From NCBI GenBank assembly GCA_028688145.1, contig JAQTYU010000001.1, positions 124,001 through 188,000 of the forward strand: a DNA stretch of 64,000 nucleotides, in the 5' to 3' direction. The notes beneath the pieces were generated by a model, which was given only the letters and a program-made list of their open reading frames with translations, was not told where the DNA came from and did not search any database. Shown here in pieces: positions 12,524-45,405 of the stretch. The stretch is from Thiotrichaceae bacterium (GTDB taxonomy: Bacteria > Pseudomonadota > Gammaproteobacteria > Beggiatoales > Beggiatoaceae). The position numbers were made by a program, and so were the translations under genes. How positions within the stretch are numbered: the first letter of the stretch is position 1; each line of letters begins with the position of its first letter.

Positions 12524-12802
12524 TTAATCATCGTCATCATCGTCCCCAAAGCGGCGGGGGACAGTTTTAGGGTCAGCAATGATAGGGCGGTAAATTTCAA
12601 CCCGATCACTGTCTTTCAATGGGGTGTTGAGTTTGACAATTTTGCCAAAAATCCCCACTTTTTGAGTTTCTAAATTCACATCGGGAAAGCGTTTTAATAA
12701 ACCTGATTGTTTAATCGCATCTTCGACTGTACTGCCTTCGGGAACTTCTAAACGCAACCACACTTGGTTCTCGTTATTTGAGTACGTGACTCCAACGTTC
12801 AT
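12524..12802 (-). CDS. rnfH: RnfH-family (ubiquitin-like fold) protein
   Basis: About 92 residues from the ATG at 12800-12802, which follows AAAGGAAA at good spacing; an upstream in-frame ATG at 12871 would add 23 unsupported residues. 'WLRLEVPEGSTVEDAIKQSG' and 'VGIFGKIVKLNTPLKDSDRV' with 'EIYRPIIADPK' are the beta-grasp RnfH signature. The tail 'RRFGDDDDDD' is very acidic. The family sits at the end of nif-linked rnf operons; its biochemical role is not settled. It lies 175 bp after rnfE with a hairpin element between them. Confidence 0.88.
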   Translation of the reverse strand: MNVGVTYSNNENQVWLRLEVPEGSTVEDAIKQSGLLKRFPDVNLETQKVGIFGKIVKLNTPLKDSDRVEIYRPIIADPKTVPRRFGDDDDDD

Positions 12803-12910
12803 CAAATTTCCTTTATCGTCTTGGGAACTTCCCCTTTCAGGGAGTTCGGTTGTACCCGCATGCGTTAACATGTTACTATTTCCAGTAAGCTCTTTATTTA
12901 CAAAGAAACT

Positions 12911-12976
12911 ATCCAGCGACCTCTACCTGTCGATGGATTGATCACTCGACAGATGAGGTCGAGTCTGGATTGAAAC
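12911..12976 (+). repeat. Hairpin repeat element, copy B
   Basis: Runs from ATCCAGCGACCTC to GAGGTCGAGTCTGGAT plus TGAAAC. GACCTC / GAGGTC and CTGTCGA / TCGACAG form a long hairpin. It aligns closely with copy A at 45340-45405 and, with a symmetric deletion, with copy C at 36588-36641. It lies between rnfE and rnfH inside the operon and could stabilise or process the transcript. Confidence 0.7.
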
Positions 12977-29592: not shown

Positions 29593-29600
29593 ATCGTTAA

Positions 29601-29630
29601 ATTTCACCAGCCCCGAAAGGCTGGTGAAAT
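29601..29630. repeat. Degenerate terminal CRISPR repeat (trailer end)
   Basis: Retains the stem-loop half of the repeat (CCAGCC-CCGAAA-GGCTGG, ending GTGAAAT), but the GTTTCAATCCATA half is replaced by ATTTCA, making a perfect 12-bp inverted repeat with a 6-nt loop. It is separated by a spacer-length 34 nt from the first canonical repeat. It may double as the terminator of the SPFH gene. Confidence 0.8.
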
Positions 29631-32600
29631 GCAGTTTTATTCCGTGCCAGTTTCTGAGCTTATTGTTTCAATCCATACCAGCCCCGAAAGGCTGGTGAAA
29701 TGCGGGCACAGAAGCCAATTCCGCAGGCTTATCCTTTGTTTCAATCCATACCAGCCCCGAAAGGCTGGTGAAATAACGGGTGGCAAACAACCCGATGCGA
29801 AAGATGCAGGTTTCAATCCATACCAGCCCCGAAAGGCTGGTGAAATTGTGACTTCGGCTAATCCCTTAGAGCGCGACATTGGTTTCAATCCATACCAGCC
29901 CCGAAAGGCTGGTGAAATTAGCAAAATCTAAGTCAAGTTTACGACATGTTAAAAGTTTCAATCCATACCAGCCCCGAAAGGCTGGTGAAATTCCATGAAC
30001 AGCGGTGTTTTAGTGCTACAAACTGGTTTCAATCCATACCAGCCCCGAAAGGCTGGTGAAATTAAACTGGCAGAATTTTTGACATCGCTGTTAGGCGTTT
30101 CAATCCATACCAGCCCCGAAAGGCTGGTGAAATCGATAAATAGCCTTTAACTTAGCTAAGAAATCAAGTGTTTCAATCCATACCAGCCCCGAAAGGCTGG
30201 TGAAATTGGTATTAGCAAGGTCAACCGTCATCAACTTATAGTTTCAATCCATACCAGCCCCGAAAGGCTGGTGAAATTGCTGTTGTCCCAGCAAAACGTA
30301 TAATCCGTTAGTTTCAATCCATACCAGCCCCGAAAGGCTGGTGAAATCCACCCGTGGCACTTGACATGATTGCAGCGATTGTTTCAATCCATACCAGCCC
30401 CGAAAGGCTGGTGAAATATCAACTACAGAGGAAGCAGTATAATGGCTGACATGTTTCAATCCATACCAGCCCCGAAAGGCTGGTGAAATAAGCGCACTCA
30501 TGATTTTCATTGTCTTGATTCATTTCGTTTCAATCCATACCAGCCCCGAAAGGCTGGTGAAATTAAAAACTTTCTTAACTGGTAGCGATGGTTTAAGTTT
30601 CAATCCATACCAGCCCCGAAAGGCTGGTGAAATGTGCGGAATAGTTGCTGGTGGTGTTGCCGTTAGCATCGTTTCAATCCATACCAGCCCCGAAAGGCTG
30701 GTGAAATGTCAACTGATATACATCCCCTACAGTGGTGCTGCCGGGTTTCAATCCATACCAGCCCCGAAAGGCTGGTGAAATGAGCTTGCTCCTATGAGTA
30801 GGCAAAAACCTACGATGTTTCAATCCATACCAGCCCCGAAAGGCTGGTGAAATACCGCAGTACCTACTCTATTAATACTTTTCCTAGTAGTTTCAATCCA
30901 TACCAGCCCCGAAAGGCTGGTGAAATCGGACATTGTCGCGATAGACAAATGCGGAATTAGCTTTGTTTCAATCCATACCAGCCCCGAAAGGCTGGTGAAA
31001 TCGCAAGTCTCCTGGACTTCACAAGCAACTCACCGTTTCAATCCATACCAGCCCCGAAAGGCTGGTGAAATTATAACTTGACTTCCAGTTGTCATACATC
31101 GGCAATGTTTCAATCCATACCAGCCCCGAAAGGCTGGTGAAATCATTAAACCCATTCGCTGGGCTTCTGTGCGCCGCAATGTTTCAATCCATACCAGCCC
31201 CGAAAGGCTGGTGAAATTGCCCTCAACATGATTCCCAGTAATTTCCACATTAGTTTCAATCCATACCAGCCCCGAAAGGCTGGTGAAATAAATGGCTTGT
31301 TGTCGCGCTGAATCATTGCGTCAACGTTTCAATCCATACCAGCCCCGAAAGGCTGGTGAAATGATGACAACATGACCGCATACGCAAAGTTGGTTTTGAT
31401 GGTTTCAATCCATACCAGCCCCGAAAGGCTGGTGAAATCTTGAGATTCAGATAAAAATCTTAATCCGTCTTGTTTCAATCCATACCAGCCCCGAAAGGCT
31501 GGTGAAATTGGTCAAACTGTCGCCAGCCGTTGCGAAGGTATAAGTTTCAATCCATACCAGCCCCGAAAGGCTGGTGAAATGCCTGTGGCAGTGGCTGCTA
31601 TGCCTAAGCCTGTAAGTTTCAATCCATACCAGCCCCGAAAGGCTGGTGAAATATTGAAATCGTGGCGAAGCGTAAAGAATCATTTTGGTTTCAATCCATA
31701 CCAGCCCCGAAAGGCTGGTGAAATTTAAATATGCTAACAAACAATGGGCTGGCGTGCTGTTTCAATCCATACCAGCCCCGAAAGGCTGGTGAAATCCCAT
31801 GTACACCCGCATGGGGAATGCCTATACCGTTTCAATCCATACCAGCCCCGAAAGGCTGGTGAAATCTCAAGGATTACGGCAACAGCTTAATGCTTAGCGC
31901 GGTTTCAATCCATACCAGCCCCGAAAGGCTGGTGAAATAAGTAGCCGAGGCATTCGGGGTTAAGTTTGAGGTCGTTTCAATCCATACCAGCCCCGAAAGG
32001 CTGGTGAAATCGGTGCATCCATCACAGTGAGTTATGACTACGGGTCTGTTTCAATCCATACCAGCCCCGAAAGGCTGGTGAAATATCAATGGTTAATGCA
32101 GAGATATTTTTGAGATTGGCATGTTTCAATCCATACCAGCCCCGAAAGGCTGGTGAAATTAGGTCATGCTTTCCACGCCAGCCTTACTGGACATCGGTTT
32201 CAATCCATACCAGCCCCGAAAGGCTGGTGAAATATGGACTCGCTTTTTTCAGCCCATTCAATCATCGCAAGGTTTCAATCCATACCAGCCCCGAAAGGCT
32301 GGTGAAATATCATGGCGATATGTACCGTGACTGACTTGGCAGTTGTTTCAATCCATACCAGCCCCGAAAGGCTGGTGAAATATTCAAGACGGGCTTAAAA
32401 CCGATTTAGACGCGATTAGTTTCAATCCATACCAGCCCCGAAAGGCTGGTGAAATCAGGCTTGCACTCCAAATGGGGATAGGGGTGTTGACTTAGAGTTT
32501 CAATCCATACCAGCCCCGAAAGGCTGGTGAAATTTGTTGGTGACTGCCATAACCCACAATAATCTTGGTTTCAATCCATACCAGCCCCGAAAGGCTGGTG

Positions 32601-32967
32601 AAATAATCCAAATTTCAAAATCTTACCAACTATGATGGTTGTTTCAATCCATACCAGCCCCGAAAGGCTGGTGAAATAGCAGCTCTGCTTTGCGAGGTTC
32701 GCAGTAAGCGAGTTTCAATCCATACCAGCCCCGAAAGGCTGGTGAAATCAGTGATGACACCGTGCCCGCAATGCTTACACCCGGTGTTTCAATCCATACC
32801 AGCCCCGAAAGGCTGGTGAAATCAAGTGGATTGCGTTGCGCTTATCGGGGGGCGATACGTTTCAATCCATACCAGCCCCGAAAGGCTGGTGAAATAGATT
32901 GACAACTATTTCCCGTCGCTCCGTGCCCATGTTTCAATCCATACCAGCCCCGAAAGGCTGGTGAAAT

Positions 32968-33002
32968 TTCATGTTTCAATCCCTGCCCGCCCCGAAGGGC
33001 GG
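32968..33002. other. CRISPR spacer that contains a different CRISPR repeat
   Basis: This 35-nt interval has exactly spacer length. After TTCAT it reads GTTTCAATCCCTGCCCGCCC then CGAAGGGCGG. That has the same design as the array's repeat (GTTTCAATCC, three bases, GC stem, CCGAA loop) with stem CCCGCC/GGCGGG instead of CCAGCC/GGCTGG. In crRNA sense it is a sister repeat's 3' end plus 5 nt (ATGAA) of that array's spacer. Confidence 0.75.
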
Positions 33003-33111
33003 GTTTCAATCCATACCAGCCCCGAAAGGCTGGTGAAATCTGATTTAACAGGCACTAAAACCGCCCAGGAACAGGTTTCAATCCATACCAGCCCCGAAAG
33101 GCTGGTGAAAT

Positions 33112-33300
33112 ACCATAATGGCAACCACATAATATATAAGCTTTATTTTGTTGTCTAGCGCGAACTGATTTTTAAAAGGGGAAATGAGAGAAATTTCAAG
33201 CAGGGAAAAAATAGAAATTATAAAAATCAAACAGATAAAGATGCGCGAACATCCCCGTATTTTTACCATCAATACAGGTTCGCGCTCTCAAAAGATATGC
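33112..33300 (-). promoter_or_regulatory. Putative CRISPR leader
   Basis: AT-rich sequence next to the last intact repeat on the side from which crRNA-sense transcription should start. It contains a 9-bp inverted repeat AGCGCGAAC (33157-33165) / GTTCGCGCT (33278-33286) and another GCGCGAAC at 33243. No ORF with support lies here. Confidence 0.5.
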
Positions 33301-36587: not shown

Positions 36588-36641
36588 GTTTCTATTCAGA
36601 CTCGACTGTCGAGTGAAAAAGCCATCGACAAGTCGGTGGGG
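36588..36641 (-). repeat. Hairpin repeat element, copy C, upstream of bfr
   Basis: Minus strand reads 'CCCACCGACTTGTCGATGGC' , then CACTCGACAGTCGAGTCTGA and ATAGAAAC. It matches copy B (12911-12976) except that both inner GACCTC / GAGGTC arm pieces are missing, a symmetric loss that keeps the hairpin. Its GAAAC end faces bfr, 30 bp before the start codon. Confidence 0.55.
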
Positions 36642-36693
36642 GAAACTGTTGCTTACAAACCCACTATAGCTTGAAAGCCCTAATTGTCAATTC

Positions 36694-45162: not shown

Positions 45163-45339
45163 TAAGCTGCTGCACTTTTGATCCGAACTTTTCTCTGCTT
45201 ATCGTCATTCTTTCCATGAAAATGGAGAGGAACATTCGTCAGATTTCCTTGCTGGTTTGAGACATCCGCCTTTATGGGGATTTTTTGACAACGATACGCC
45301 AGTATCCTTTACTGTAACCTCCTCGTTCATGGTGAGGCA

Positions 45340-45405
45340 CAATCCATCGACCTCTATCTGTCGGTGGGTTTCACCTAGCGGATGAGGTCGGGTGTGGATT
45401 GAAAC
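45340..45405 (+). repeat. Hairpin repeat element, copy A, abutting the receptor start codon
   Basis: Starts CAATCCATCGACCTCTATCT and ends GAGGTCGGGTGTGGATTGAAAC-like (45383-45405); CAATCCA/TGGATTG, CGACCTC/GAGGTCG and GGTG/CACC fold into one long hairpin. Bases 45368-45405 (GTTTCACCTAGCG to TGGATTGAAAC) resemble the crRNA-sense CRISPR repeat (ATTTCACCAGCC to TGGATTGAAAC) at about 28 of 36 aligned positions by eye. The next base is the A of the ATG. Confidence 0.7.

What the first reader, a model, noticed from the sequence alone, without database searches (positions are those of the whole stretch)
32968..33002. A CRISPR spacer that is itself a piece of another CRISPR array
The 35-nt spacer is TTCAT plus 30 nt with the exact design of the resident repeat but a different stem (CCCGCC/GGCGGG). 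In crRNA sense it spans a sister array's repeat end and its first spacer bases. It is near the presumed leader, so recent. It suggests acquisition from another CRISPR locus, either in this genome (self-targeting) or on an invading plasmid or phage. The alternative is recombination between arrays that happened to keep spacer length.
Basis: seen in the sequence. Interest (0 to 1): 0.72.

Follow-up and report, generated by a model that had tools for sequence, protein, structure and literature searches.

The report
CRISPR spacer matching a phage-borne repeat
A bacterium's immune memory holds one entry that is a piece of a foreign CRISPR repeat, most likely taken from a virus that carries a repeat look-alike, a kind of sequence known from other viruses to jam this immune system, so the host may have recorded the virus's own counter-weapon.

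Summary
Window 32968-33002 is a normal-length (35 nt) spacer, second from the leader, in a 48-spacer type I-C array. In crRNA sense it is CCGCCCTTCGGGGCGGGCAGGGATTGAAAC + ATGAA: a hairpin plus handle of another repeat, then 5 nt of what follows it. It is the only one of 304 spacers in the genome with this design, by a wide margin.

No sister array exists in this genome. No copy with 3 or fewer mismatches was found in 369 gammaproteobacterial genomes, and no exact repeat piece in the viral scan. The closest in-genome sequence is phage-borne: a Mu-like prophage carries a one-spacer mini-array whose repeat matches the spacer at 30/35. At least 31 other resident spacers hit the same phage family, mostly with PAM TTC/TTT. 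A solitary repeat in an IMG/VR contig matches 31/35, including ATGA after the handle.

Best reading (about 0.6): ordinary acquisition from a repeat unit carried by a related Mu-like phage, a candidate RNA anti-CRISPR or mini-array. Acquisition from a foreign bacterial array remains possible. The exact donor was not found and its PAM is unknown.

In passing: this prophage and a relative both sit inside CRISPR repeats.

The parts
32968..33002 (-). focal spacer, crRNA sense CCGCCCTTCGGGGCGGGCAGGGATTGAAACATGAA: 30 nt of a foreign repeat (hairpin + handle) plus 5 nt of its downstream neighbour
32973..33002 (-). repeat-derived part of the spacer; folds into CCGCCC/GGGCGG with a UUCG loop (-12.4 kcal/mol)
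32968..32972 (-). ATGAA, the 5 nt that followed the handle in the donor
   Evidence: compare ATGAT after the handle in viral contig L095
32931..32967 (-). flanking resident repeat, perfect copy
33003..33039 (-). flanking resident repeat, perfect copy
33040..33074 (-). spacer 1, leader-proximal neighbour
29594..33111 (-). whole type I-C-associated array, 49 repeats (the last one degenerate) and 48 spacers
33112..33261 (-). leader, conserved at four arrays of this genome

Best explanation
[quoted passage not shown] the piece happened to be a CRISPR-repeat-like unit carried by that phage (a mini-array repeat or solitary repeat unit, the type of sequence known as an RNA anti-CRISPR when tested in other systems) plus the 5 nt after it. 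Shown: the spacer is a foreign repeat end plus neighbour; the resident prophage carries such a unit in an accessory stretch of its early region; this phage family is a major target of the resident arrays. Inferred: that the donor was this phage family, that the phage unit acts on the I-C effector, and that the spacer now guides cutting of the unit's DNA. A further inference: because the captured piece keeps its hairpin and handle, the pre-crRNA could be cut by Cas5c inside the spacer, leaving a 5-nt guide, so the spacer may be a poor guide or even a small decoy in the host's own array.
For: Resident prophage repeat GTTCATCCGCCCTTCGGGGCGGGTATGGATTGAAAC at C14:284582-284616(-) (L034) matches the spacer 30/35, closer than the resident repeat plus spacer (27/35). 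32 of 304 spacers including this one match the prophage or its relative at 6 mismatches or fewer, 0 of 304 shuffled; others of the same quality (4-5 mismatches) have PAM TTC; overall TTC 16, TTT 9. The prophage is Mu-like: MuA, MuB, Mor-like, head genes. The repeat unit lies in L034 2305-3182, a stretch missing from the 88-92% identical relative, in sense with the early genes and next to two small ORFs without a PHROG match. Solitary units of the same design occur in at least nine viral contigs, one of which (L095) matches 31/35 and is followed by ATGA. RacrIC1, a phage solitary repeat, inhibits type I-C (PMC10651486). Cas operon is I-C: Cas5c, Cas8c, Cas7, Cas4, Cas1c, Cas2 by reading.
Against: The exact donor is not found in viral contigs, phages, plasmids or genomes. 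Most of the 30/35 is stem and handle, which many repeats share; the three-base linker (CAG against TAT) and the 5-nt flank (ATGAA against AAGTT) differ. Next to the prophage unit the PAM would be CAT, not TTC (TTC is 2 nt further out).
Confidence: 0.6

Rival explanations
1. The spacer was taken from the CRISPR array of another bacterium (DNA taken up from a dead neighbour, or an array on a plasmid), not from a phage.
For: Arrays whose repeats carry CCGCCCTTCGGGGCGGG and end in GGATTGAAAC exist in unrelated MAGs.
Against: None of these has the CAG linker or the ATGAA flank; none in 96 relatives or 369 class members at 3 mismatches or fewer; none on plasmids. At least 31 other resident spacers trace to the Mu-like phages.
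Confidence: 0.25
2. Recombination or an in-place rearrangement between arrays placed part of another repeat here by chance at spacer length.
For: Repeats are shared among five arrays, so recombination between them is possible in principle.
Against: No donor array with this repeat in the genome; both flanking repeats perfect and the spacer length typical.
Confidence: 0.05
3. A resident repeat was duplicated and then mutated in place, or the assembly is wrong at this point.
For: 25 of 30 letters agree with the resident repeat.
Against: Five changes in 30 with compensation in the stem while neighbouring repeats are perfect; the foreign flank TTCAT; contig of 737 kb.
Confidence: 0.05

Closest known systems
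RNA anti-CRISPRs (Racr) / solitary repeat units, Camara-Wilpert et al. 2023 (PMC10651486)
   Same: Phage-borne mimic of a host repeat, hairpin plus handle, here in a prophage accessory stretch of the early region; a I-C Racr is known.
   Different: The prophage unit is a two-copy, one-spacer mini-array with a degenerate second repeat, untested; and the focal item is a host spacer apparently taken from such a unit, which I did not find described in the papers searched.
Virus-borne mini-CRISPR arrays, Medvedeva et al. 2019 (PMC6858448)
   Same: Viral repeat-spacer-repeat unit without cas genes.
   Different: No leader seen; the 33-nt spacer of the prophage matched nothing but itself in the loci held; it is itself hairpin-like.
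Self-targeting and prophage-targeting spacers
   Same: Spacer matches a resident prophage imperfectly.
   Different: The matched site is itself a CRISPR repeat unit.
Prophage integration into CRISPR loci in Streptococcus pyogenes (Varble et al. 2021, known here only through the citation in PMC10651486)
   Same: Prophage sits inside a CRISPR repeat.
   Different: Here a Mu-like transposing phage, 6-bp target duplications, two different offsets in the repeat.

Membership tests
spacer of a type I-C CRISPR array | flanked on both sides by intact repeats of one family | tested here: met
spacer of a type I-C CRISPR array | length within the array's distribution | tested here: met
   35 nt, the commonest length
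spacer of a type I-C CRISPR array | type I-C cas genes in the genome, adaptation genes included | tested here: met
   Cas2 read
spacer of a type I-C CRISPR array | protospacer with PAM TTC | tested here: inconclusive
   donor not found; nearest site has CAT, TTC 2 nt out
RNA anti-CRISPR / solitary repeat unit (the prophage unit) | repeat-like hairpin and handle on a mobile element without cas genes | tested here: inconclusive
   hairpin and handle on a Mu-like prophage shown; the whole prophage was not scanned for cas genes, but the genome's only Cas1 lies elsewhere
RNA anti-CRISPR / solitary repeat unit (the prophage unit) | single copy, no neighbouring repeat within 100 bp | tested here: not met
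   a degenerate second copy lies 33 nt away
RNA anti-CRISPR / solitary repeat unit (the prophage unit) | inhibits the host CRISPR-Cas system | not testable with these tools
   needs an infection or interference assay
virus-borne mini-CRISPR array (the prophage unit) | one or two spacers between host-like repeats | tested here: met
   one 33-nt spacer, first repeat host-like, second degenerate
virus-borne mini-CRISPR array (the prophage unit) | spacer matches a related virus | tested here: inconclusive
   no exact match to its 24-nt core in 296 loci other than itself

The most novel reading that the evidence does not exclude
The host has acquired a spacer against a phage's RNA anti-CRISPR, and the captured repeat works against the host because Cas5c cuts inside the spacer, so the acquisition plants a small anti-CRISPR decoy in the host's own most expressed array positions.
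Probability: 0.2. Interest if true: 0.8.

Novelty: new variant of a known kind. Interest (0 to 1): 0.6.

Why it matters
If right, adaptation can sample the repeat mimics that phages use against CRISPR-Cas, and a spacer of this kind carries its own processing signal. That makes two questions testable: whether a repeat-bearing spacer can guide interference at all, and whether it acts as a decoy. It also points to a Mu-like phage family that carries repeat mimics, is heavily targeted, and is found inserted in CRISPR repeats of its host.

Tried and rejected
Sister array in the own genome: pattern scans with up to 2-3 mismatches and a scan for non-resident handles gave only the prophage unit and other families. 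Exact repeat piece in viral contigs (none), phages and plasmids (only short or weak matches). Linker-free scan of 84,980 species genomes: five stretches, none with the CAG linker. Spacer 3' end with free linker in viral contigs: three chance-like hits. Full spacer at 3 mismatches or fewer in 369 genomes: only itself. Relatives of two prophage proteins in viral contigs: none, and only the already known contig. The dispersed elements of this genome were considered as donors and rejected: their stems differ. A structure prediction was not used, since no protein decides the question.

Full report
What is there. The window holds a 48-spacer array (29594-33111, crRNA on the minus strand) with 37-nt repeats ATTTCACCAGCCTTTCGGGGCTGGTATGGATTGAAAC. 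Four arrays of this genome share a leader, which places the window array's leader at 33112 and up, so the focal spacer is second from the leader. The genome has five array stretches with 304 spacers, one Cas1 and a type I-C operon next to one array (Cas2 by reading).

The spacer. In crRNA sense it reads CCGCCCTTCGGGGCGGGCAGGGATTGAAAC then ATGAA. Its match to the resident repeat scores 20; the next best of 304 spacers scores 10 and 2000 shuffles reach 10. Rfam's CRISPR-DR9 model overlaps it at E 0.017, below the family's own cut-off. It differs from the resident repeat at 5 of 30 positions by direct reading, with a compensated stem pair, while both flanking repeats are perfect.

Where it does not come from. 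No array with this repeat is present in the genome. The 30-nt piece with a free linker has no match in viral contigs, and in species genomes it gives five stretches, none with the right linker. The whole spacer at 3 mismatches or fewer is found only at itself in 369 class members. Phage and plasmid collections gave nothing convincing.

What it resembles. A prophage on contig C14 carries two repeat-like units 33 nt apart; the better one, GTTCATCCGCCCTTCGGGGCGGGTATGGATTGAAAC, matches the spacer 30/35. The prophage is Mu-like (MuA, MuB, Mor-like activator, head proteins). The unit is in a stretch absent from a relative that is 88-92% identical elsewhere, in the sense of the early genes. Of 304 resident spacers, 32 (the focal one included) match this prophage or the relative at 6 mismatches or fewer, none of 304 shuffled ones do, and the flanking triplet is TTC in 16 and TTT in 9. 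By match quality the focal spacer behaves like the other phage-derived spacers, except that its flank in the resident prophage is CAT with TTC 2 nt further out. Since the stem and handle are shared by many repeats, this identification is likely but not proven.

Phage repeats of this design are not rare. Among viral contigs, at least nine carry single units of stem, TTCG loop, stem and GGATTGAAAC. One of them (L095) matches the spacer 31/35 and is followed by ATGAT, against ATGAA in the spacer. Another (L096/L290) stands just before a small gene that reads like a helix-turn-helix regulator (by eye). Phage solitary repeats act as RNA anti-CRISPRs, and one was shown to inhibit type I-C (PMC10651486).

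Mechanism. Most likely the adaptation machinery took a 35-bp fragment from a Mu-like phage strain whose repeat unit differed slightly from the resident prophage's. The crRNA would then match the phage's repeat unit. Two consequences are inferred only: the spacer could direct cleavage of phages with that unit, and its internal hairpin and handle could attract Cas5c and spoil the crRNA. Folding of the array segment gives many competing hairpins and does not decide this.

Other structures met on the way. The prophage lies inside a CRISPR repeat of the C14 array, with a 6-bp duplication GGTATG, and the relative lies inside a repeat of another array with the duplication CTTTCG; joining the flanks restores an intact repeat in both. 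The relative was found by a search for repeats, so it is not an unbiased sample. In Pseudomonas, Mu-like phage rearrangements centred on the CRISPR locus arise under self-targeting selection (PMC11406979), so selection is an alternative to targeting. The genome also has about 38 dispersed elements whose last 10-14 nt equal the CRISPR handle; they look like small mobile elements and are not the donor.

Limits. No reads, no metagenome scan, donor not found, no test of activity.

Noticed in passing
G000:C14:277476-313390 (L033, L034, L035) and IMGVR_UViG_3300009419_000038 (L047, L048, L294, L295): Two related Mu-like prophages are each inserted inside a CRISPR repeat, at different offsets, with 6-bp target duplications GGTATG and CTTTCG; the first splits an array into 70 and 13 spacers. 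Only one copy of the transposase gene is in the genome.
   Followed up: partly
window 12798-12976 (+), 45235-45405 (+), 36588-36653 (-); about 38 copies genome-wide: Dispersed structured element, left end next to TTCAT in most copies, no evident target duplication, right end GRGTNTGGATTGAAAC like the CRISPR handle. Two alternative hairpins are supported by paired changes. Absent from 44 relatives. Looks like a small mobile element; the transposase is unknown.
   Followed up: partly
L073 1478-1516 (G000:C15 near 29928): A solitary repeat ATTTCACCCATCTTTCGGGATGGGTATGGATTGAAAC with a changed but complementary stem, flanked by near-copies of GGACGTTACCAATAAT.
   Followed up: no
L034 3459-3473 (-) and L048 5657-5680 (+): The last 15 nt of the repeat, GGTATGGATTGAAAC, occur inside an open reading frame of both Mu-like phages.
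   Followed up: no
L084, L085, L095, L096, L097, L104, L122, L129, L165: Viral contigs with single or two far-apart repeat units of stem-TTCG-stem-GGATTGAAAC design, candidate RNA anti-CRISPRs.
   Followed up: partly
L034 2550-2582 (-): The one spacer of the prophage mini-array contains an inverted repeat GGGAG..CTCCC, so it may be a structural hairpin rather than a guide.
   Followed up: no
L036, spacers 28 and 56 of the C28 array: Two spacers both begin CCATACCAGCCT, 11-12 nt of the repeat in antisense; spacer 28 otherwise matches the Mu-like phage.
   Followed up: no
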